A stretch of 52,139 nt of DNA from Solirubrobacterales bacterium (GCA_027451345.1 DAIDJO010000130.1:1-52139), one strand, 5' to 3'; positions 4,671 to 16,694 are shown, counted from the stretch's first letter. The notes: generated by a model not told the origin, from the sequence alone. Numbers and translations: made by a program.

Positions 4671-5360
4671 GTGGCGCACTCATTCGCCGACGCCGACCAC
4701 CTGCCGAACCGACGCCCCGGCGATCCGGCCGACCCGGCCGGCCTGCCGCGCCAACGCCGGGGCACGACCCCGCAGATGCATGGGCGCTACCCCGACTTCA
4801 ACGTCATGGACGACCGCGACCACTGGGACCCGGTGACGCGCGCGGTGCTCGAGCAGCGGGTCGCCCCCCCCCCGCCCTGCCGCTTCTTCACCGAGAACGA
4901 GCAGCGCACGCTCGCCGCCCTGTTCGACGTCATGCTCGCCCAGGACGCCGAGCCGCGCGTGCCGGTGCTCGAGATGGTCGACGCGAAGCTCTACGCCGGA
5001 CAGCTCGACGGCTACCGCTACGAGACGATGCCGGCGGACGACCGGACGATGCAGCTCGTCGCCCAGCACCTGGAGGGGCTGGCCGACCTCGACCCCGACG
5101 GCCGGCACGCGCGCGTGAAGGCGTTCGCCGACGGTGAGCTGCACTGGGAGGGGCTCGACGCCTCGCTCGCCTGGAAGGTGGCCACGCGCCTGGCCGTCTC
5201 CGCGTTCTATTCACACCCGTGGGCGTTCAATGAGATCGGCTTCCGCGGGCCGGCCTACCCGCGCGGCTACATGCGCCGCAACATGGGGCCCGGGGGCACC
5301 GAGCCGGACGAGCCGAAGGAGGCCTTCGGGCTCGATCCGGTCCAGGACATCGGGGGCTGA
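4671..5360 (+). CDS. Gluconate 2-dehydrogenase subunit 3 family protein
   Basis: 229 residues resembling the small (gamma) subunit of membrane-bound FAD-dependent gluconate dehydrogenases, which pairs with the GMC flavoprotein. Family-like features are FFTENEQRTLAALFDVMLAQD (about 74 onward), the AFYSHPWAFNEIGFRGPAYPRGY region and a C-terminal acidic tail. The classical subunit carries a Tat signal peptide that exports the complex; here the N-terminus is polar with no twin arginine or hydrophobic core, so this version appears cytoplasmic. GTG start three bases after the previous stop. A run of ten C residues (4864-4873) encodes Ala-Pro-Pro-Pro and is a slippage-prone site. Confidence 0.82.
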   Translation: MAHSFADADHLPNRRPGDPADPAGLPRQRRGTTPQMHGRYPDFNVMDDRDHWDPVTRAVLEQRVAPPPPCRFFTENEQRTLAALFDVMLAQDAEPRVPVLEMVDAKLYAGQLDGYRYETMPADDRTMQLVAQHLEGLADLDPDGRHARVKAFADGELHWEGLDASLAWKVATRLAVSAFYSHPWAFNEIGFRGPAYPRGYMRRNMGPGGTEPDEPKEAFGLDPVQDIGG

Positions 5361-5366
5361 TCGCCG

Positions 5367-7058
5367 ATGCCGCGCGGCCACCCGTTCCGTGACCCGGTTC
5401 CCTCGTGGAACCGCTCGGCCCTGCTGCTCGACGTCCACCGGCGTGGGATCCCGCACCTCGAGCGCATGGCTCGCTACGACGACGATGACGAGGTGGACAT
5501 GGTGATCGTCGGGGCGGGCGCGGGCGGCTCCACCCTCGCGCAGCGCCTCGCCCGGCGCGGCTGGCGCATCGTGATCCTCGAGTCGGGCCCGTTCTGGGAC
5601 CCCGACCGCGACTGGGTCTCCGACGAGGCGGGGTCACACAAGCTGTACTGGACCGCCCCACGGGTGATCGGCGGCAGCGACCCGGTCGAGCTCGGCAAGA
5701 ACAACTCGGGCCACGGGGTGGGCGGCTCGATGGTGCACTACGCCGGCTACGCCCCGCGATTCCACCCCTCGGACTTTGAGACCCGCACCCGCGACGGGGT
5801 CGGCGCCGACTGGCCGATCGGCTACGCCGAGCTCAGGCCCCACTACGAGCGAATCGAGCGCGAGCTGCCCGTGGCCGGACAGAACTGGCCGTGGGGGGAT
5901 CCCCACTCCTACCCGCAGGCGCCCCACCCGCTCTCGGGGGCGGCGGAGGTCGCGCGCGAGGGCGCCCGCAAGGCGGGCATCGCGATGCGCGTCGGCCCGG
6001 TCGCCATCACCAACGGGGTATTCGGCAACCGCCCCCACTGCATCTACCGGGGGTTCTGCCTGCAGGGCTGCAAGGTGAACGCCAAGGCCTCCCCGCTCGT
6101 CACCCATCTGCCCGACGCGATCGCCCACGGCGTCGAGGTGCGGGCGGACTCGCACGTCGCGCGCGTCGAGATCGACGAGCGCGGCCGCTGCACCGGCGTC
6201 ACCTACTTCCACGACGGGACCGAGCGCTTCCAGCGCGCGACGATCGTCGTCGTGGCCGGCTACTCGATCGAGTCGCCGCGCCTGCTGCTGAACTCGACGA
6301 GCGCGCGCTTCCCGAACGGGCTGGCCAACCACAACGATCAGGTCGGCCGCTACGTGATGGTGCAGGGGGCCCCGCAGGTCGCGGCGCGCTTCCCGCAGCT
6401 CGCCCACCAGTACAAGGCCCCGCCCCCCGAGGTCTGCTCCGAGCAGTTCTACGAAACCGACCCGTCACGCGGTTTCGCCCGCGGCTTCTCGATCCAGACG
6501 GTCGGTCCCCTGCCGATCGCCTGGGCCGAGCACGTCCTCGCCGACGGCCATTGGGGCCACGCGCTGCGCGAGTACATGCGCGACTACAACCACTGGAGCA
6601 CGCTCGGCCTCCTCTGCGAGCTGCTGCCCCAGCCGGAGAACCGGGTCACCCTCGCCGACGAGCACGACTCGCACGGCCTGCCCGTCGCCCACTTCAGCTA
6701 CTCCCAGTGCGACAACGACCGGGCCAACATCGCCTATGGCAAGCAGGTGCTCGAGCGAATCTGGGAGGCGGCCGGCGCCCAGGACATCCTGACGATCGAC
6801 CGTTACGCGCACCTCGTCGGTGGATGCCGGATGGGGGCCTTCCCGGACAGCTCGGTCGTCGACGCCGACCACCGCGCCTGGGAGGTGCCGAACCTGTTCG
6901 TCTGCGACGGCAGCGTCATGCCGACGCAGGGCTCCGCCAACCCGGCGCTCACGATCATGGCGCTCGCCTCGCGCCTCGCCGACCGGCTCGCGGACAAGCG
7001 GGTCGGAGCGAGCCCCGCGGCGCGCGCCCGAAGCAGCGGCGAGGGCGCGCTTGCCTGA
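5367..7058 (+). CDS. GMC family oxidoreductase (gluconate/sugar dehydrogenase large subunit-like)
   Basis: 563 residues. FAD-binding GAGAGG (49-54) is followed by the acidic Glu72 of the Rossmann fold. The C-terminal region has HLVGGCRMG and QGSANPALT, typical of the GMC active site. Cys225, Cys231 and Cys235 (C-x5-C-x3-C) lie where FAD-dependent gluconate, fructose and glucose dehydrogenases carry a 3Fe-4S cluster, so electrons probably leave through an iron-sulfur centre. No signal peptide is present and no cytochrome c subunit gene is adjacent. The start is six bases after the small-subunit gene. Likely oxidises a sugar, polyol or sugar acid at the 2-position; substrate not determined. Confidence 0.9.
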   Translation: MPRGHPFRDPVPSWNRSALLLDVHRRGIPHLERMARYDDDDEVDMVIVGAGAGGSTLAQRLARRGWRIVILESGPFWDPDRDWVSDEAGSHKLYWTAPRVIGGSDPVELGKNNSGHGVGGSMVHYAGYAPRFHPSDFETRTRDGVGADWPIGYAELRPHYERIERELPVAGQNWPWGDPHSYPQAPHPLSGAAEVAREGARKAGIAMRVGPVAITNGVFGNRPHCIYRGFCLQGCKVNAKASPLVTHLPDAIAHGVEVRADSHVARVEIDERGRCTGVTYFHDGTERFQRATIVVVAGYSIESPRLLLNSTSARFPNGLANHNDQVGRYVMVQGAPQVAARFPQLAHQYKAPPPEVCSEQFYETDPSRGFARGFSIQTVGPLPIAWAEHVLADGHWGHALREYMRDYNHWSTLGLLCELLPQPENRVTLADEHDSHGLPVAHFSYSQCDNDRANIAYGKQVLERIWEAAGAQDILTIDRYAHLVGGCRMGAFPDSSVVDADHRAWEVPNLFVCDGSVMPTQGSANPALTIMALASRLADRLADKRVGASPAARARSSGEGALA

Positions 7059-8148
7059 GCTCGACGCCACCGTGGAGCGGCTCGAGGCGGCCGCCTACAC
7101 GATCCCCACCGACCGCCCCGAGTCGGACGGGACCAAGGAGTGGGACTCGTCCACGATCGTCGTCGTGCACGCCCACGGGGGCGGCGAGGTCGGCCTCGGG
7201 TACACCTATGGCCCGAGCACGGTCGCGCACCTGATCGAGTCGATGCTCGCCGACTCCGTGACCGGAAGCTCCGCGCTCACCCCCCAACGCGTGCACCGCC
7301 GGCTGCGCGCCGGCCTGCGGGACGCCGGCCAGGCCGGGCTCGGCGCCCTCGCCCTGAGCGCGGTCGACGTCGCGCTCCACGACCTGCGGGCGCGACTGCT
7401 CGGACTGCCGCTCGCCACGGCCCTCGACGCCGTCCGCGACAACGTTCCGATCTACGGGTCCGGGGGCTTCACGACCTACGACGGCGCCCGCGTCGCCGAA
7501 CAGCTCGGCGGCTGGGCCGCGCAGGGGATCCCCCGGGTGAAGATGAAGATCGGGCGCCACCCGGGTCAGGACGCCGCCCGGATGGCGGCGGCGCGCGAGG
7601 CGATCGGCTCCAACGTCGCGTTGATGGTCGACGCGAACGGGGCGTTCAGCCCCGACCAGGCGCTCGAGTGGCTCACCCGCCACGCCCGCTTCGGCATCGA
7701 TTACTTCGAGGAGCCGGTGTCCAGCGACGACCTGCCCGGGCTGCGGCGGGTGCGCGAGCGGGCGCCGCGGGAGACGTCGATCGCCGCCGGGGAGTACACC
7801 TGGAGCCCGCTCGACACGCGGCGGCTGCTCGAGGCCGAGGCGGTCGACATCGTGCAGGCGGATGTGACGCGCTGCGGCGGCATCACCGGCCTGCTGCAGG
7901 TCGGCGCGCTGTGTGAGGCGCACGAGCGGCCGTTCTCCGCGCACTGCGCGCCGGCCATCACCGCCCACGCCGGCTGCGCCCTGAGCCGTCTGGTGCACTG
8001 CGAGTACTTCCACGACCACGTGCGCATCGAGGGGATGCTCTTCGACGGGGTCCCACCGGTGCGCGACGGCGCGCTGTGGCCCGACCGCGGCGTCAGCGGC
8101 CACGGGCTGACGCTGCGCGAGGACGAGGCGCGCCACTACCGGGTCTGA
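7051..8148 (+). CDS. Mandelate racemase/muconate lactonizing (enolase superfamily) protein, probable sugar acid dehydratase
   Basis: About 365 residues. Barrel-domain residues of the superfamily are visible: KMK (Lys164, Lys166), metal ligands Asp194 (DAN), Glu220 (FEEP) and Glu248 (GEY), Asp271 and a catalytic His298 (AHCAP). This pattern fits acid-sugar dehydratases and related enzymes that abstract a proton alpha to a carboxylate. The preferred start is TTG 7051, which overlaps the GMC stop by eight bases and has GAGGG six bases upstream; GTG 7072 is an alternative. As last gene of the oxidation operon it probably dehydrates the acid made by the dehydrogenase. Its end overlaps the convergent AbiEi-like gene by 13 bases. 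Confidence 0.88.
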   Translation: MPELDATVERLEAAAYTIPTDRPESDGTKEWDSSTIVVVHAHGGGEVGLGYTYGPSTVAHLIESMLADSVTGSSALTPQRVHRRLRAGLRDAGQAGLGALALSAVDVALHDLRARLLGLPLATALDAVRDNVPIYGSGGFTTYDGARVAEQLGGWAAQGIPRVKMKIGRHPGQDAARMAAAREAIGSNVALMVDANGAFSPDQALEWLTRHARFGIDYFEEPVSSDDLPGLRRVRERAPRETSIAAGEYTWSPLDTRRLLEAEAVDIVQADVTRCGGITGLLQVGALCEAHERPFSAHCAPAITAHAGCALSRLVHCEYFHDHVRIEGMLFDGVPPVRDGALWPDRGVSGHGLTLREDEARHYRV

Positions 8149-9488
8149 GACCGCGAGACGGCGGAGCTGTCGAGCCGCTCGCCCAGGAGGCCGAGCAGGG
8201 CGCTCACCCGCGGCAGGGCCTCTCGCCTGACGGCGATGAGCTGCTCTCGCCCGCTGCGGCGCGTGCGGACCAGCTCGGCTCGCTCCAGCACCGAGACGTG
8301 CCGTCGCACCGTCGTGCGGTTGAGCTCGAGGCGTCGGGTGAGCGCCGAGATCGACTGCTCCCCCGCGGCCGCATGAACGAGGATGCGGCGGCGAGTGGCG
8401 TGGGCGAGCGCATGAAGGAACCGGTCCTCCGCCTCGTCGTCGAGCCGCGCCGCGTCAGCGCATGGCGCGGCCCCGTCCGGGCTCGGTGCGGGCAACGCCG
8501 CTCGCCCCCGCAGGAGCCGGCCGAGACGCTGGACCCCCGCGGATGTCACATCGTCGGAGGGCAGCCGAACGGTGGGCATTCCCGTGGCGAGCAGGATCGC
8601 GAAGTCGCGACGCCGGTCCTCCACGAACCGCTCACGGGTGCGATGGGATCCCCACCCATCGAGCTCGACGACAAGGCGCTGGTCCGGGAAGAGCGCGTCG
8701 ACGCGGTGGCCGGCGACGCCGACGTTGATCTGCGGAACGGGCAGGCCGTGGGCGAGCAGGAGCGGCAGGAAGCGGTCCTCCAGCTCCGATCGTGTCGGCT
8801 CGGGATGGGCGTGCTCGAGGTGTTCGCGCAGGAGTCTCGCCGACGGATGGGTGCGATTTCGGTCGACGATGTCCCCCAATTCGTCGAGGGTGAGCAGCCT
8901 GCGCAACCGGAGATCACTGACGGCTCGACCGAGTTGGGACGGGGAGAGCCGGCTCGCGGTGTCGAGCAACGTGCGCGCCGGGCTGGCGACACGCAGTCCC
9001 TGGACCACGCGGATGTCCGCGCGACGGATCGTCGTGATGCGGTGGACAACCAGCCCCGCGGGACGTCGATCGCCCACGATCAGCACCTCGAACCGCTCCG
9101 GCCAGCGTTTCCAGACTCCCCAGAGCACGAGCGCGGCGGCGCCGGTCAGCGCGGAGGGACGACCGGCGGCGAGAAGGGCCGCATGCGCCCGATCGATCGG
9201 GTTGGGGGATCGGTGGCCGACCGCGTACACGCCCCGGTGGACCCGGATCAACCGCCCGCGGGCGACCCAGTCGGTGATCGTGCGAGCGGGCACTCCCGCC
9301 TGCAGCAGTTGCGCCCGCGTGATGTGGCCGCCCTGCCGCTGGGCGAACCCGCGGACGTTGCGCGCGTATTCCTGCCTACTTCCTCCCGAGCCCGGAGCGG
9401 TCCCGACGCCGATCGGCGTCGGGACCGCTCCGGGCTGAGGAGCAGCCGTGAAGGGCAGATCGTCTGAGGGGGCGGCGACCGGTGGCAT
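8136..9488 (-). CDS. AbiEi-like winged helix, DUF559 nuclease-like and ArsR-like HTH fusion
   Basis: About 450 residues from ATG 9488. After a low-complexity leader, residues about 40-91 form the N-terminal winged-helix domain of AbiEi-type antitoxins (GGHITRAQLLQAGV, HRGVYAVG). Residues about 236-313 look like the DUF559/Vsr-like endonuclease fold (RVDALFPDQRLVVELDG), with Asp264 and Glu276 as plausible PD-(D/E)xK acids. Residues about 354-420 form an ArsR-like helix-turn-helix (HATRRRILVHAAAG, TVRRHVSVLERAELV). The first two domains together are common in this bacterial class; the extra C-terminal HTH looks unusual. No AbiEii toxin gene is adjacent. A 48-bp perfect palindrome lies inside the leader. 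The start is uncertain (an upstream ATG at 9584 is in frame). Confidence 0.75.
   Translation of the reverse strand: MPPVAAPSDDLPFTAAPQPGAVPTPIGVGTAPGSGGSRQEYARNVRGFAQRQGGHITRAQLLQAGVPARTITDWVARGRLIRVHRGVYAVGHRSPNPIDRAHAALLAAGRPSALTGAAALVLWGVWKRWPERFEVLIVGDRRPAGLVVHRITTIRRADIRVVQGLRVASPARTLLDTASRLSPSQLGRAVSDLRLRRLLTLDELGDIVDRNRTHPSARLLREHLEHAHPEPTRSELEDRFLPLLLAHGLPVPQINVGVAGHRVDALFPDQRLVVELDGWGSHRTRERFVEDRRRDFAILLATGMPTVRLPSDDVTSAGVQRLGRLLRGRAALPAPSPDGAAPCADAARLDDEAEDRFLHALAHATRRRILVHAAAGEQSISALTRRLELNRTTVRRHVSVLERAELVRTRRSGREQLIAVRREALPRVSALLGLLGERLDSSAVSRSQTR
9389..9436. repeat. 48-bp perfect palindrome inside a coding sequence
   Basis: Bases 9389-9410 are the exact reverse complement of 9415-9436 around a central GATC, so all 48 bases are palindromic. 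It lies in frame in the N-terminal leader of the AbiEi-like fusion gene, where it encodes PGAVPTPIGVGTAPG; being symmetric it encodes the same peptide on the other strand. In RNA it would form a 22-bp stem. It is not a typical terminator because it is near the 5' end of the gene and no T-run follows. No second copy was found in the window. Confidence 0.85.
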
Positions 9489-9593
9489 ATCCAAGAGAGG
9501 CGCCAGCGCCCGGTGTCTGCCCCCCCCACCCGAGCAGCTCACCTCGCAATTTGCGCCGATTGCCGCCCGATCTCGGTGACACACTGGACGCTC

Positions 9594-11978: not shown

Positions 11979-13316
11979 TCAGTCCTCGGTTGCGCTCACC
12001 CGTTCGAGGTCCGCCACGCCGCTCTCGACGGCGGCCTGGCGAACCGCCTCGGCGACGACCTCGTGCACCCTCCGGTCGAGCATCTCGGGGATCAGCTCCG
12101 AGGAGACGGTGAGCCCGGCGAGGGCCCAGGCGGCCGCCCGCTTCATCTCCAGGTTGATCTCGTGGGCGCCGGCGAGCAGGGCGCCCTTGAAGATGCCGGG
12201 GTAGCCGAGCACGTTGTTGATGCTCGTGCCGTCCGCCGCGAACGCGGCCCCTGCGGCCAGGGCCGCCTCGGGGTCGATCTCCGCCGCCGGATTGGTGAGC
12301 GCGAAGATCACCTGCCCCGGTCGGACCATCTCGGGCCGGATCAGGCCGGGCTTGCCGCTCGTCGCGACGACGACGTCCGCCTCGCGCATCAGTGTGTCGA
12401 GGTCGGCGATCTCGATGCCGCGGGCGCGCGCGTGCTCCTGGGCGGCCGGGTTGGGGTCGGAGGCGAGCACCCGCTTGACGCCCGCGTCATGGATCAGCGT
12501 GGCGATCCCGAATCCCGCCGCGCCGAGCCCGACCTGGCCGACGACGGCCTCGTCGAGCCGCATGTCGGCCTGCCGGCAGGCGGCGATCAGCGCGGCGAGG
12601 GTGACGACCGCCGTGCCGTGGACATCGTCGTGCATCACGGGCTGGGGCAGCACCTCGATCAGGCGGCGCTCGATCTCGAAGCAGTCGGGGGTCGAGATGT
12701 CCTCGAGGTGGATCCCGCCGAAGCCGGGCGCGATCCGCACGACGGTGTCGACGAACTCGTCGACGTCCTTGGTGTCGATCAGGATCGGGATCGCGGCGAT
12801 GTCGACGAGCTGTGCGTAGAACATCGCCTTGCCCTCCATCACGGGCATCGCCGCGACCGGGCCGATGTCGCCGAGCCCGAGCACCCGGCTGCCGTTGGTG
12901 CAGATGGCGACGCTGCGGCCGATCATCGTGAAGCGCGAGGCGAGCTGCGGGTACTCGTGGATCGCCGTGGAGACGCGCGCCACCCCGGGGGTGTAGACGT
13001 CGCGCACCTCCTGATTGGTGGTGACGGGGTGGCGGGGACGGACCTCGAGCTTGCCCCCGACGTGCGCGATGAACGCGCGGTCGTGGTACCAGACGACCCG
13101 CACGCCCGGGAGCTGCCCGAGCGCCACGGCGAGCTGGTCGGCGTGGTCCTTGTCGCGGAGCTCGACCGTGATCTCGCGGATCGCCTCGAGCCGGGCGACC
13201 GTGATCGTCTGGACGTCCCCGATCAGGCCGTCGTGCTCGCTGATCAGGGTGGCGACCTTCGCGAGCTGACCGGCGGCGTGCGGGATCCGCAGACGGTAGG
13301 TGCAGTCCATCGGCAT
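11979..13316 (-). CDS. NAD(P)-dependent malic enzyme with N-terminal ACT domain
   Basis: 445 residues. Family reaction: oxidative decarboxylation of malate to pyruvate. An ACT domain (about 5-85; TYRLRIPHAAGQLAKVATL) probably binds a small-molecule effector. The catalytic part has YTPGVARV, the GKAMFY lysine region, the metal-binding GGIHLEDIS and HDDVHGTA motifs and a Rossmann segment (GLGAAGFG) ending in DPNP. The ATG at 13316 is chosen; ATG 13310 is two codons later. It is divergent from the ring-cleavage operon, whose predicted end products are pyruvate and oxaloacetate, so it may balance C3/C4 pools during growth on the aromatic substrate. That link is inference. Confidence 0.9.
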   Translation of the reverse strand: MPMDCTYRLRIPHAAGQLAKVATLISEHDGLIGDVQTITVARLEAIREITVELRDKDHADQLAVALGQLPGVRVVWYHDRAFIAHVGGKLEVRPRHPVTTNQEVRDVYTPGVARVSTAIHEYPQLASRFTMIGRSVAICTNGSRVLGLGDIGPVAAMPVMEGKAMFYAQLVDIAAIPILIDTKDVDEFVDTVVRIAPGFGGIHLEDISTPDCFEIERRLIEVLPQPVMHDDVHGTAVVTLAALIAACRQADMRLDEAVVGQVGLGAAGFGIATLIHDAGVKRVLASDPNPAAQEHARARGIEIADLDTLMREADVVVATSGKPGLIRPEMVRPGQVIFALTNPAAEIDPEAALAAGAAFAADGTSINNVLGYPGIFKGALLAGAHEINLEMKRAAAWALAGLTVSSELIPEMLDRRVHEVVAEAVRQAAVESGVADLERVSATED

Positions 13317-13433
13317 GGCGGCAATCGTACGTGGCCGCGGTGGCGGGCCGCGGAGCGGGTCGGCCCGGTGCTCGAGCGGCTCGCCCGCACGCAAACGGTT
13401 CCCATTGCATGCAGGGTTCGCTACCTTCCGGCC
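13317..13433. promoter_or_regulatory. Divergent promoter region between malic enzyme and the DUF6282 operon
   Basis: This 117-base gap holds a TTCCCA (13399-13404), a 17-base spacer and TACCTT (13422-13427), a weak sigma-70-like pair that would start transcription close to the ATG at 13434, consistent with a leaderless mRNA because no ribosome binding site is seen. An 8-base palindrome TGCATGCA (13406-13413) sits in the spacer and could be part of an operator. No regulator gene is adjacent. Motif matches are weak. Confidence 0.3.
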
Positions 13434-14357
13434 ATGGCCACGCATCCCACCCCCACCGACCGGGCGCGTCGGCTCCTGCGGGGCGCGTACGACATGCACG
13501 TCCACATCGACCCGGACTTCGTCCCGCGGATCATCGACGACGTGAGCCTCGCCCGCCGCTGCCTCGAGCTCGGCCTGGCCGGCTTCCAGATGAAGTCCCA
13601 CTACACCTCGACCGCCGAGCGCGCGCGGACGGTGAACGCCGCGGTGCCCGGCGTGCGGGCGATCGGGGCGATCGTGCTCAACCGGGCCGTGGGAGGCATG
13701 AACCCGCTCGCCGTGGAGGTCGCCGCCCGCGAGGGCGCGCGCACGGTCTGGATGCCGACCGTCAACTCCACGGGCGAGATGGAGGAGGTGCACAGCTTCG
13801 CGCCCGGCGCGCCGATGCCGGTGTGGATGAAGTTCGAGGTCTCGCTGCGCGAGGCCGGCGTGGCCGCCGATCCGGTCGCCGTGCTCGGCGCCGACGGGAC
13901 GCTGCTCCCGGCCGTACGGGAGGTGCTGGCGGTGGCCGCTCGCCACCAGCTCGTGCTCGCCACCGGGCACCTCGCGCGGGACGAGATCTTCGCGGTGGTC
14001 GACGGCGCGCTCGACGCGGGGATCCGCGACGTCGTCGTCACCCACCCGGAGTTCCCGTCCCAGAACCTGAGCCTCGAGGACCAGGCCGAGCTCGCCCGGC
14101 GGGGCGCGCTGCTCGAGCGCTGCTTCACCACCCCATACACGGGAAAGGTGGCGTGGGAGCACGTCTATGACGGGGTACGCGCGAGCGGGGTCGAGCACAA
14201 CGTCCTCTCGACCGACCTCGGGCAGGTCTTCAATCCGCCGGTGGAGGACGGGCTGGCGCTGTTCGCCGACCGCTTCCTCGAGGCCGGCTTCAGCGAGGAG
14301 GAGGTTCAGCACATGGCGGTGACGAACACGCGTCGGCTGGCGGGGGAGGACGGATGA
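13434..14357 (+). CDS. DUF6282 family metal-dependent hydrolase-like protein
   Basis: 307 residues. Starts with DMHVHIDPDF (20-29), an HxH pair at His22/His24, then Lys54 (QMKSHY), His179 (ATGHL), His204 (THPEF) and Asp261 (STDLGQ). The order HxH, Lys, His, His, Asp is that of amidohydrolase-superfamily TIM barrels with a binuclear metal site. It opens a four-gene operon and overlaps the GalB-like gene by four bases (ATGA). By analogy with LigI, an amidohydrolase that opens 2-pyrone-4,6-dicarboxylate, it may hydrolyse a lactone or pyrone by-product of ring cleavage, or act as the missing tautomerase. The family has no function I can name with confidence. Confidence 0.8.
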   Translation: MATHPTPTDRARRLLRGAYDMHVHIDPDFVPRIIDDVSLARRCLELGLAGFQMKSHYTSTAERARTVNAAVPGVRAIGAIVLNRAVGGMNPLAVEVAAREGARTVWMPTVNSTGEMEEVHSFAPGAPMPVWMKFEVSLREAGVAADPVAVLGADGTLLPAVREVLAVAARHQLVLATGHLARDEIFAVVDGALDAGIRDVVVTHPEFPSQNLSLEDQAELARRGALLERCFTTPYTGKVAWEHVYDGVRASGVEHNVLSTDLGQVFNPPVEDGLALFADRFLEAGFSEEEVQHMAVTNTRRLAGEDG

Positions 14358-15067
14358 GCCGGCGCCTCCAGGTGATCGGGGCCCACTCGGCGGACTTCGT
14401 CTGGCGCGCCGGAGGCGCGATCGCCAAGACGGTGGAGCTCGGGGGCGTCGCCGAGGTCGTCGCGCTCTCGTACGGCGAACGCGGCGAGTCCGGCGAGTTG
14501 TGGAAGGACGAGCACCAGACGATCGAGAACGTCAAGCGGATCCGGCACGCGGAGGCCGAGGCGGCCGCCGGTGAGCTCGGCGCGAGCTTCCGGGCACTCG
14601 ACCTCGGCGACTACCCGCTGCAGATCGGCGCGGACGAGCTCGGGCTGATCGCGGAGACGATCCGCGCGTTCGCTCCCGACGTGCTCATCACCCACACCGA
14701 CACCGACCCGTTCAACCCGGACCATCCGGTGGCCTTCCACGCCGTCGACCGGGCGCGTTCACTCGCGGCCGGAGCCGGGGTGCAGAGCGCCTTCCGGACC
14801 GTGCGCCCACCGCAGCTCTTCCTGTTCGAGCCCCACCAGCCGGAGCTGTGCCGCTTCACGCCGACGACGTTCGTCGACATCACGTCGGTGTTCGAGAAGA
14901 AGCAGGCGGCGATGGCCCACATGAAGGCCCAGGCCTACCTGCAGACCTACTACGCCCAGCGGGCCGAGCACCGCGCCAACCATGCCCGCCGCGCCAGCGG
15001 CAACCAGGAGGTGCGCTACGCCGAGGCGTTCCAGCGGATCATCCCGCAGGTGGTGAGCGAGCTGTGA
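14354..15067 (+). CDS. galB: PIG-L family protein, 4-oxalomesaconate hydratase-like (GalB)
   Basis: 237 residues. The usual PIG-L metal motif HPDDE is replaced by HSADFVWR (11-18) followed by AGGAIA, and by SYGERGESGELW (39-50) downstream. As far as I recall this wording is typical of the gallate-pathway hydratase GalB rather than of sugar deacetylases. Further metal-site residues are Asp123/His124 (NPDHP) and His129. GalB converts 4-oxalomesaconate to 4-carboxy-4-hydroxy-2-oxoadipate. The next gene encodes the aldolase that splits that product, which supports the call. Four-base overlaps on both sides (ATGA and GTGA). A generic PIG-L deacetylase is the alternative. Confidence 0.78.
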   Translation: MSRRLQVIGAHSADFVWRAGGAIAKTVELGGVAEVVALSYGERGESGELWKDEHQTIENVKRIRHAEAEAAAGELGASFRALDLGDYPLQIGADELGLIAETIRAFAPDVLITHTDTDPFNPDHPVAFHAVDRARSLAAGAGVQSAFRTVRPPQLFLFEPHQPELCRFTPTTFVDITSVFEKKQAAMAHMKAQAYLQTYYAQRAEHRANHARRASGNQEVRYAEAFQRIIPQVVSEL

Positions 15068-15735
15068 GCGAGATCGGGGCTGCCGGCGGCCGACGGCCGG
15101 CCGACGGTGAGGACACGATGCGGACCCTCGCGCGACTCGGCTCCGCCACCGTGTACGAGGCGAGTGGGCGCGGCGGCCACGTCGACGCGGACCTCATCCA
15201 GGCCGTCCCGGCCAGCCGGGCAGCCGGTCCGGCACGGACCGTGCGCTGCGCCCAGGACGACAACCTGATGGTGCATGCGGTGATGGCCGAGGTGCAGCCC
15301 GGCGAGGTGATCGTGCTCACCATGCCCGAGCCTCGCCCGGTCGCGCTCGTCGGCGACCTGCTGGCGACCCAGGCGCAGGCGGCGGGCGCGGCCGCGATCC
15401 TGGTCGACGGGGCGATCCGCGACGTCGAGGAGCTGGCCGAGATGGGGCTGCCCGTCTGGGCGCGCTGGGTGCGCGTCAAGGGCGCACGCAAGGAGACGGC
15501 GGGTGAGATCAACGCGCCGGTGACCGTGGGCGGCGCGGAGATTCGACCCGGCGACGTGCTGGTGCTCGACGCCGACGGGGTCGCCGTGGTGCCCCGGGAC
15601 CGGGTCACGGAGGTGCTCGAGGCGTCACTGGCCCGCGAGGAGAAGGAGCGCGTGAAGCGCGCGAAGCTCCGGTCGGGCGAGAAGTCATACGACCTGGACG
15701 GCCTGCGGGCCGTCGTGGAGGAGCAACGGACATGA
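15064..15735 (+). CDS. galC: 4-carboxy-4-hydroxy-2-oxoadipate aldolase-like protein (RraA/GalC/LigK family)
   Basis: 223 residues from a GTG that overlaps the GalB-like stop (GTGA). The class II pyruvate aldolase/RraA fold is shown by GSATVYEASGRGG, GDLL (97-100) and DGAIRD (115-120), where Arg119 and Asp120 match the substrate- and metal-binding Arg-Asp pair. The C-terminus (GDVLVLDADGVAVVPRD) is also typical. The family reaction cleaves 4-carboxy-4-hydroxy-2-oxoadipate to pyruvate and oxaloacetate and can decarboxylate oxaloacetate. RraA-like regulators share the fold, but the GalB neighbour and the extradiol dioxygenase next door favour the aldolase. The upstream 15 or so residues are low complexity, so the start could be ATG 15118. 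Confidence 0.82.
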   Translation: MSEIGAAGGRRPADGEDTMRTLARLGSATVYEASGRGGHVDADLIQAVPASRAAGPARTVRCAQDDNLMVHAVMAEVQPGEVIVLTMPEPRPVALVGDLLATQAQAAGAAAILVDGAIRDVEELAEMGLPVWARWVRVKGARKETAGEINAPVTVGGAEIRPGDVLVLDADGVAVVPRDRVTEVLEASLAREEKERVKRAKLRSGEKSYDLDGLRAVVEEQRT

Positions 15736-16694
15736 GCGAGCTGACGCCCCCGGACATCGCCCACCTCGGGCCGATCGAGCTGCTGACGCCCAGGCCGCAG
15801 GAGAGCGTCGAGTTCTTCACGGAGATGATGGGGATGGAGGTGGTCCACCGGGCGGGCCAGTCCGTCTATCTGCGGGGCTGGGACGACTACCAGATCTGGT
15901 CGCTGAAGCTGACCGAGTCACCCCAGGCCGGGATGGGGTACTGCGGCTTTCGCACCTGGAGCCCGGAGGCGCTCGAGCGCCGGGTGGCGCTGATCGAGCA
16001 GGCGGGCCTCGGCCGCGGCTGGGAGGAGCAGGGGGACTTCGGGGTCGGGCGCGCCTACGCGTTCGATGACCCGGACGGGCACCGCTTCAAGCTCTACAGC
16101 GAGGTGGAGCGGTACGAGAAGCGGGTCGTGACCGACTTCAAGAATGTTCACGGCAAGCAGCCGAACAGGGCGATCGCCGTCAAGCGCTTCGACCATCTCA
16201 ACATCCTGGCGGGCGACATCCGGGCCCAGCGCGACTTCGCGGTCGGGACGCTCGGGTACCGCGAGTACGAGCGCATCGAGCTCGACGACGGGACGCTCGG
16301 GGGCTCGTGGATGTCGGTGACGATCGCCGCGCACGAGCTGATCTACACCAAGGACGCGTTCGCGCCGCAGGGGGCGCACGGACGCCTGCACCACGCCGCG
16401 TTCTGGGTCGACACGCGCGAGGAGTGCCTGCGCGCCGCCGACATCTGGATCGAGAACGAGGTCTACGTCGAGTTCGCCCCCTCCAAGCACAACGTCGCCC
16501 AGGGCTTCTTCCTGTACGGCTACGAGCCGGGCGGCAACCGCATCGAGGTGACCTCGGGCGGAAGGCTCGTCTACGCCCCGGACGAGCCGTGCGTGGTCTG
16601 GACCCAGGCCGATCGGGCGAAGGGACAGGCCTGGCACAACCAGACCGTGCAGACGTTCCACACCTACGGGACGCCGCCGTTCGAGCCGGCCTGA
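15732..16694 (+). CDS. Type I extradiol dioxygenase (VOC fold, catechol 2,3-dioxygenase-like)
   Basis: 320 residues forming two VOC modules (about 8-125 and 152-275). The C-terminal module has the 2-His-1-carboxylate iron ligands: His155 (RFDHLNI), His220 or His221 (LHHAAFWV) and Glu272 (NRIEVTSG). His253 and Tyr262 fall where the acid-base His and Tyr of extradiol dioxygenases are found. It should open a catechol- or pyrogallol-like ring next to the diol. It is last in the operon, overlapping the aldolase gene by four bases (ATGA). Classical gallate and protocatechuate 4,5-dioxygenases belong to the unrelated LigB fold, so its pairing with GalB/GalC-like enzymes is noteworthy. Confidence 0.87.
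   Translation: MSELTPPDIAHLGPIELLTPRPQESVEFFTEMMGMEVVHRAGQSVYLRGWDDYQIWSLKLTESPQAGMGYCGFRTWSPEALERRVALIEQAGLGRGWEEQGDFGVGRAYAFDDPDGHRFKLYSEVERYEKRVVTDFKNVHGKQPNRAIAVKRFDHLNILAGDIRAQRDFAVGTLGYREYERIELDDGTLGGSWMSVTIAAHELIYTKDAFAPQGAHGRLHHAAFWVDTREECLRAADIWIENEVYVEFAPSKHNVAQGFFLYGYEPGGNRIEVTSGGRLVYAPDEPCVVWTQADRAKGQAWHNQTVQTFHTYGTPPFEPA

What the first reader, a model, noticed from the sequence alone, without database searches (positions are those of the whole stretch)
13434..16694. Candidate gallate-type ring-cleavage operon with a type I dioxygenase and a DUF6282 protein
Four genes with 4-base overlaps encode DUF6282 (HxH/Lys/His/His/Asp amidohydrolase-like), a GalB-like PIG-L protein with HSADFVWR instead of HPDDE, a GalC/LigK-like aldolase and a two-module VOC extradiol dioxygenase with His155, His220/221 and Glu272. 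Classical gallate and protocatechuate 4,5-dioxygenases are LigB-fold (type II) enzymes, so the VOC enzyme would be a different solution feeding the same 4-oxalomesaconate/CHA steps. DUF6282 could be a LigI-like lactonase/pyrone hydrolase or the missing tautomerase. Products pyruvate and oxaloacetate fit the divergent malic enzyme.
Basis: partly seen in the sequence, partly recalled or inferred. Interest (0 to 1): 0.75.

Follow-up and report, generated by a model that had tools for sequence, protein, structure and literature searches.

The report
Gallate-type operon with VOC dioxygenase
A four-gene bacterial operon that very probably breaks down the plant acid gallate using a ring-cutting enzyme from a different protein family than any gallate cutter known to us, plus an uncharacterised helper protein (DUF6282) that probably opens or rearranges the first product.

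Summary
Four + strand genes (13434-16694), each overlapping the next by 4 bp, encode DUF6282, a GalB-type hydratase, a GalC-type aldolase and a two-module VOC (type I) extradiol dioxygenase. The order is conserved in about 20 loci from Solirubrobacterales and Rubrobacter; Meiothermus and Thermus keep the genes with VOC in front.

The gallate reading is supported from an unexpected side. Plasmids of Agrobacterium, Rhizobium, Thioclava, Roseibium and Pantoea put the same VOC clade beside GalB, GalC and bona fide GalD, without ligAB. On walnut-isolate pAt plasmids a tannase follows. OMA-linked VOC enzymes form one clade apart from catechol, alkylcatechol and homoprotocatechuate enzymes. The window genome has no LigB-fold enzyme and no GalD, but has a PcaGH-type pair for protocatechuate.

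DUF6282 is a confident amidohydrolase barrel, related to LigI only at superfamily level. In several actinomycete genomes an ABC importer, DUF6282, GalB and GalC occur without either type of ring-cleaving enzyme. This favours a pyrone-dicarboxylate (PDC) hydrolase. In VOC clusters DUF6282 and GalD never co-occur, so a tautomerase role stays open.

No activity has been shown. New variant of a known pathway, moderately high interest. A clade member has a solved structure (9wgj), so prior knowledge cannot be excluded.

The parts
13434..14357 (+). DUF6282 protein, amidohydrolase-fold; proposed PDC (2-pyrone-4,6-dicarboxylate) hydrolase, alternative OMA tautomerase
   Evidence: PF19799 212 bits; AF2 pLDDT 94, barrel like PTE/dihydroorotase/lactonase, VIA Z about 20; invariant H22, H24, K54, H56, H179, H204, D261 in 48 homologues
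14354..15067 (+). GalB-type 4-oxalomesaconate hydratase (PIG-L fold)
   Evidence: only PDB match is GalB 5cgz, E 8e-59, shared HSADFVWR; PF02585
15064..15735 (+). GalC/LigK-type CHA aldolase / oxaloacetate decarboxylase
   Evidence: NF006731 186.6 bits over cut-off 179; 3noj E 4e-41; R119-D120 invariant
15732..16694 (+). two-module VOC (type I) extradiol dioxygenase, proposed gallate 4,5-dioxygenase
   Evidence: AF2 pLDDT 85.5, fold of AphC/C23O/HPCD; iron ligands H155, H221, E272; clade of OMA-linked VOC enzymes
13317..13433 (.). 117-bp divergent intergenic region between malic enzyme and operon, probable promoter region
   Evidence: gene coordinates; not tested further
11979..13316 (-). divergent NAD(P)-malic enzyme with N-terminal ACT-like domain; link to the operon only inferred
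   Evidence: PF00390, PF03949, weak ACT_4; beside the operon in 3-4 closest relatives only

Best explanation
The operon is a gallate (possibly 3-O-methylgallate) ring-cleavage pathway. The VOC dioxygenase opens the ring between C4 and C5, giving 4-oxalomesaconate (OMA, enol form) and/or its lactone PDC. DUF6282, an amidohydrolase-fold enzyme, hydrolyses PDC to OMA, the job LigI does elsewhere. The GalB-type hydratase makes 4-carboxy-4-hydroxy-2-oxoadipate, and the GalC-type aldolase splits it into pyruvate and oxaloacetate. Shown here: gene identity, order and conservation, folds, iron ligands, and absence of the usual enzymes. Inferred: substrate, cleavage position, and the DUF6282 reaction.
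For: Four-gene block conserved in about 20 loci. The same VOC clade sits beside GalB, GalC and GalD in Agrobacterium, Rhizobium, Thioclava, Roseibium, Pantoea and Nonomuraea, with no ligAB; a PF07519 tannase (438 bits) follows on walnut A. tumefaciens pAt plasmids. GalB of the proteobacterial VOC clusters is 71-78% identical to GalB of a canonical ligAB cluster, so the OMA route is retained. OMA-linked VOCs form one clade of 33 (support 89/96) excluding 3lm4 (near-identical to AphC), C23O and HPCD. LigB fold absent from the own genome and 18 of 21 carriers; PrpF/GalD absent from 21 of 21. PcaGH-type pair present, so protocatechuate has its own route. For PDC hydrolysis: ABC importer + DUF6282 + GalB + GalC in genomes with neither OMA-clade VOC nor LigB enzymes; DUF6282 coexists in one operon with genuine GalD (L081).
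Against: No activity data. Type I enzymes with 4-substituted catechols usually cleave proximal to the substituent, and OMA needs distal cleavage. Proteobacterial VOC clusters have GalD but no lactonase, so there the VOC product seems to be OMA rather than PDC. DUF6282 and GalD never occur together in VOC clusters, which also fits a tautomerase. The window genome has no tannase. Its MAG is only 85% complete, though a complete close relative (G012) agrees.
Confidence: 0.55

Rival explanations
1. Same pathway, but DUF6282 is an OMA tautomerase that replaces GalD (PrpF family), and the VOC enzyme makes OMA directly from gallate.
For: Among VOC-GalB-GalC clusters, 22 have DUF6282 and 7 have GalD, none both; no PrpF homologue in 21 carrier genomes or records. 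Proteobacterial clusters need no lactonase.
Against: A Streptomyces operon holds GalD (517 bits, cut-off 440), DUF6282, GalB and GalC together, and three Micromonospora loci hold GalD plus DUF6282. ABC-DUF6282-GalB-GalC loci without ring-cleavage enzymes need an enzyme that makes OMA, not one that isomerises it.
Confidence: 0.28
2. The VOC enzyme is a protocatechuate 4,5-dioxygenase. A dehydrogenase makes PDC from CHMS, then DUF6282, GalB and GalC follow, giving a LigABCIJK pathway built mostly from unrelated proteins.
For: Thermus oshimai and Meiothermus clusters carry a PobA-like hydroxylase and a DUF1932 dehydrogenase with VOC-DUF6282-GalB-GalC. DUF1932 is often adjacent to DUF6282. Roseomonas has VOC, VanAB-like genes, a LigI-like lactonase and DUF1932.
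Against: In the window genome and the complete relative G012 there is no DUF1932 orthologue, and a PcaGH-type pair is present; Meiothermus also has such a pair. Tannase linkage in Agrobacterium points to gallate.
Confidence: 0.17
3. The VOC enzyme is an ordinary catechol-type (proximal-cleaving) dioxygenase for another catechol, and the GalB/GalC-like proteins act on a different branched intermediate.
For: Annotated as catechol 2,3-dioxygenase in public records; TIGR03211 score 294 is only a little under its cut-off of 320.
Against: VOC clade separate from catechol enzymes; steady linkage to near-canonical GalB/GalC/GalD and tannase.
Confidence: 0.1

Closest known systems
Pseudomonas putida gal operon (galTAPDBC), gallate catabolism
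   Same: GalB hydratase and GalC aldolase homologues; end products pyruvate and oxaloacetate
   Different: ring cleavage by VOC instead of the LigB-fold GalA; DUF6282 instead of GalD; no GalT/GalP or LysR GalR beside it
Sphingobium SYK-6 / Azospirillum / Nitratireductor protocatechuate 4,5-cleavage cluster (LigABC, LigI, LigU, LigJ, LigK)
   Same: OMA to CHA to pyruvate + oxaloacetate; an amidohydrolase-fold enzyme may open PDC
   Different: no LigAB, no LigC, no LigI orthologue in the operon; DUF6282 is a different family within the superfamily
AphC (7q2a), 3lm4, catechol 2,3-dioxygenase, homoprotocatechuate 2,3-dioxygenase
   Same: two-module VOC fold, 2-His-1-Glu iron site, conserved second-sphere W193, H253, Y262 and H201 (H or Y in the clade)
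   Different: separate clade; HPCD carboxylate Arg243 replaced by Phe/Ala/Thr; clade-specific R295 and K/R297 near the C-terminal lid
PDB 9wgj (labelled catechol 1,2-dioxygenase)
   Same: inside the OMA-linked VOC clade, E 6e-92 to the window protein
   Different: label and genomic context could not be checked here; it may already report this enzyme type

Membership tests
Type I (VOC) extradiol dioxygenase | two tandem VOC modules and 2-His-1-Glu iron ligands | tested here: met
   PF00903 two stretches; H155, H221, E272 aligned to HPCD ligands; fold match
Catechol 2,3-dioxygenase (TIGR03211 equivalog) | score over curated cut-off | tested here: not met
   293.7 bits against 320.2; separate clade
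Type II LigB-fold gallate/protocatechuate dioxygenase | PF02900 domain | tested here: not met
   VOC protein is PF00903; no PF02900 in own genome
GalB 4-oxalomesaconate hydratase | closest to characterised GalB, HSADFVWR motif and metal residues | tested here: met
   5cgz E 8e-59 and the only PDB match; H11, D14, H114 invariant in 12 relatives; BshB1 score far below cut-off
GalB 4-oxalomesaconate hydratase | hydrates OMA | not testable with these tools
   needs an enzyme assay
GalC/LigK CHA aldolase | curated equivalog score | tested here: met
   NF006731 186.6 over 179; the stricter ligK_PcmE model scores 179.8 under 304.5
LigI PDC hydrolase (PF04909, cog3618) | sequence membership of the family | tested here: not met
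   DUF6282 protein hits only PF19799; hhalign with LigI orthologues finds only a short C-terminal stretch, probability 16%
LigI PDC hydrolase (works like) | hydrolyses PDC | not testable with these tools
   inferred from context
GalD/PrpF OMA tautomerase | PF04303 domain | tested here: not met
   no PF04303 in DUF6282 protein or in carrier genomes
Amidohydrolase superfamily | distorted TIM barrel with HxH after strand 1, His after strands 5 and 6, Asp after strand 8 | tested here: met
   model m1de97feec0de; H22, H24, H179, H204, D261 invariant; no Lys after strand 4, so no sign of a carbamylated-lysine binuclear site

The most novel reading that the evidence does not exclude
A widespread, undescribed type I (VOC) gallate dioxygenase clade, cleaving distal to the carboxylate and found in Actinomycetota, Deinococcota and Pseudomonadota, with DUF6282 as a second, independently recruited PDC hydrolase.
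Probability: 0.35. Interest if true: 0.8.

Novelty: new variant of a known kind. Interest (0 to 1): 0.62.

Why it matters
Every gallate or protocatechuate 4,5-dioxygenase we know of is LigB-fold. A VOC clade doing this would correct many 'catechol 2,3-dioxygenase' and 'PIG-L deacetylase' annotations, give DUF6282 a function, and point to gallotannin use by soil actinobacteria and plant-associated Agrobacterium. PDC is a wanted polymer precursor, so a new PDC-forming or PDC-opening enzyme is also of practical use.

Tried and rejected
DUF6282 and DUF1932 yielded no informative papers in the library; 9wgj gave none. No paper found in the library reports a VOC gallate dioxygenase. DUF6282 as a protein with a binuclear lysine-bridged site: rejected on motif placement. 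DUF6282 as hydratase or aldolase: rejected because GalB or LigJ-like and GalC occur beside it. Malic enzyme as a core part: not conserved. DUF1932 as CHMS dehydrogenase: plausible in Thermus and Meiothermus, but it also accompanies GalBCD plus VOC without a lactonase, so its role stays unexplained. VIA-align and Foldseek do not single out LigI-like enzymes; 2ffi appears only at rank 11 of Foldseek.

Full report
WHAT IS THERE. Four genes on the + strand, 13434-16694, each starting 4 bp before the end of the previous one: DUF6282 (PF19799, 212 bits), a PIG-L protein, an RraA-like protein and a two-module VOC protein. The PIG-L protein's only match among solved structures is P. putida GalB, 5cgz (E 8e-59), which carries the same HSADFVWR motif; the motif is therefore the GalB signature, not an oddity. 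The RraA-like protein passes the CHA aldolase model NF006731 (186.6 over 179) and matches the P. putida aldolase 3noj. The VOC protein matches AphC/3lm4, C23O and HPCD in sequence and predicted fold; H155, H221 and E272 align with the HPCD iron ligands and do not vary in 33 clade members.

CONSERVATION. The same four genes in the same order occur in relatives down to about 55% protein identity, and in named records of Solirubrobacterales, Conexibacter sp. S30A1, Candidatus Solirubrobacter, Rubrobacter and Rubrobacteraceae. Meiothermus (L083) and the Thermus oshimai plasmid pTHEOS01 (L121) have VOC, a GntR regulator, DUF6282, GalB, GalC and a DUF1932 dehydrogenase, together with a PobA-like hydroxylase and ring-hydroxylating dioxygenase subunits.

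THE DIOXYGENASE FEEDS OMA. In plasmids of Agrobacterium vitis, A. tumefaciens, Rhizobium, Thioclava, Roseibium, Pantoea and in Nonomuraea the same VOC clade lies beside GalB, GalC and GalD. GalD of A. vitis passes the 4-oxalomesaconate tautomerase model (503 bits over 440), and GalB of the alphaproteobacterial VOC clusters is 71-78% identical to GalB of a canonical ligAB cluster of Azospirillum. So the OMA/CHA route is retained and VOC occupies the place of LigAB/GalA. On 19 A. tumefaciens pAt plasmids from walnut a PF07519 tannase (438 bits) follows GalD; tannase releases gallate from gallotannins. In a tree of 48 VOC proteins the OMA-linked ones, with 9wgj and three others, form one group of 33 (support 89/96) that excludes 3lm4 (close to AphC), C23O and HPCD. 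HPCD's carboxylate-binding Arg243 is not kept, but R295 and K/R297 are clade features near the C-terminal lid; whether they bind the gallate carboxylate is a guess.

WHY GALLATE RATHER THAN PROTOCATECHUATE IN THIS GENOME. The own genome has no LigB-fold protein and has an adjacent pair of intradiol subunits, as expected for PcaGH. It lacks the DUF1932 dehydrogenase seen in Thermus, Meiothermus and Rubrobacter, as does the single-contig relative G012. Protocatechuate cleavage gives an aldehyde that needs a dehydrogenase to reach OMA; gallate cleavage does not (established pathway chemistry). The genome has no tannase, so free gallate would be the substrate. A PobA-like protein is present at 378 bits, below the PobA cut-off of 538.7. 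The MAG is 85% complete, so absences are weak one by one.

DUF6282. The model is confident (pLDDT 94) and is an amidohydrolase barrel (VIA Z about 20 to phosphotriesterase homologues, dihydroorotase, isoaspartyl dipeptidase and lactonases). Invariant residues are H22 and H24 after strand 1, K54 and H56 after strand 2, H179 after strand 5, H204 after strand 6 and D261 after strand 8; there is no lysine after strand 4. It is not LigI: only a short C-terminal stretch aligns in profile comparison, and it hits neither PF04909 nor PF04303. Two readings compete. (a) PDC hydrolase: 16 loci in Micromonospora, Streptomyces and relatives are an ABC importer plus DUF6282-GalB-GalC, and several of those genomes (M. 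arborensis, M. avicenniae, S. abyssalis, Micromonospora sp. 15K316 and others) have neither an OMA-clade VOC nor any LigB enzyme, so DUF6282 should make OMA from what is imported, and PDC is one hydrolysis away. A Streptomyces operon contains genuine GalD, DUF6282, GalB and GalC together. Roseomonas places a lactonase of the LigI/sulfomuconolactone group next to the DUF1932 gene, as other genomes place DUF6282. (b) Tautomerase: in VOC clusters DUF6282 (22 loci) and GalD (7) never meet, and no carrier genome has a PrpF protein. I favour (a) but not strongly.

MECHANISM, WITH STATUS. Gallate + O2 to OMA/PDC by VOC (inferred); PDC to OMA by DUF6282 (inferred, weaker); OMA + H2O to CHA by GalB (strong homology); CHA to pyruvate + oxaloacetate by GalC (strong homology). 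VOC enzymes on 4-substituted catechols normally cut next to the substituent (from own knowledge of C23O and HPCD), whereas OMA requires the distal cut; this is the main biochemical risk of the idea.

NOVELTY. AromaDeg places gallate and protocatechuate 4,5-dioxygenases in the LigB superfamily only (PMC4250580), and my searches of the open library found no VOC gallate dioxygenase. Subscription papers were not searchable, and 9wgj shows that a clade member has been crystallised.

Noticed in passing
L121:12253-13020, L138:1373-2257, L184:543-1418, many others: DUF1932/6PGDH-like dehydrogenase is a constant neighbour of GalB/GalC/GalD modules in several phyla; its reaction is not explained by either the gallate or the protocatechuate scheme.
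   Followed up: partly
L065, L088, L092, L096, L099, L101, L075: ABC importer (NMT1/SsuA-like binding protein) with DUF6282-GalB-GalC and, in several of these genomes, no ring-cleavage enzyme of either type: a possible PDC (or related lactone) uptake and degradation operon.
   Followed up: partly
L185:9246-14617 (A. tumefaciens 186 pAt): GalB-VOC-GalC-GalD-tannase on conjugative plasmids of walnut isolates, a likely gallotannin-use island annotated as deacetylase and catechol dioxygenase.
   Followed up: yes
L038:1302-7953: VOC (51%) and DUF6282 (60%) adjacent without GalB/GalC, next to HpaB-like, nitrilase and aldehyde dehydrogenase genes: DUF6282 may act directly on a VOC product there.
   Followed up: no
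L031:3680-4333, L033:7598-7909: A SnoaL_4-like protein directly downstream of VOC in several Solirubrobacterales, possible extra isomerase/dehydratase.
   Followed up: no
L033:3-2438, L034:2396-5352: ThDP decarboxylase plus intradiol dioxygenase upstream of the operon in one subgroup.
   Followed up: no
window 4671-7058: Gluconate dehydrogenase subunit 3-like and GMC oxidoreductase pair; the GMC family also sits near the operon in some relatives.
   Followed up: partly
window 8136-9584 (-): AbiEi-like antitoxin domains fused to an ArsR-type HTH.
   Followed up: no
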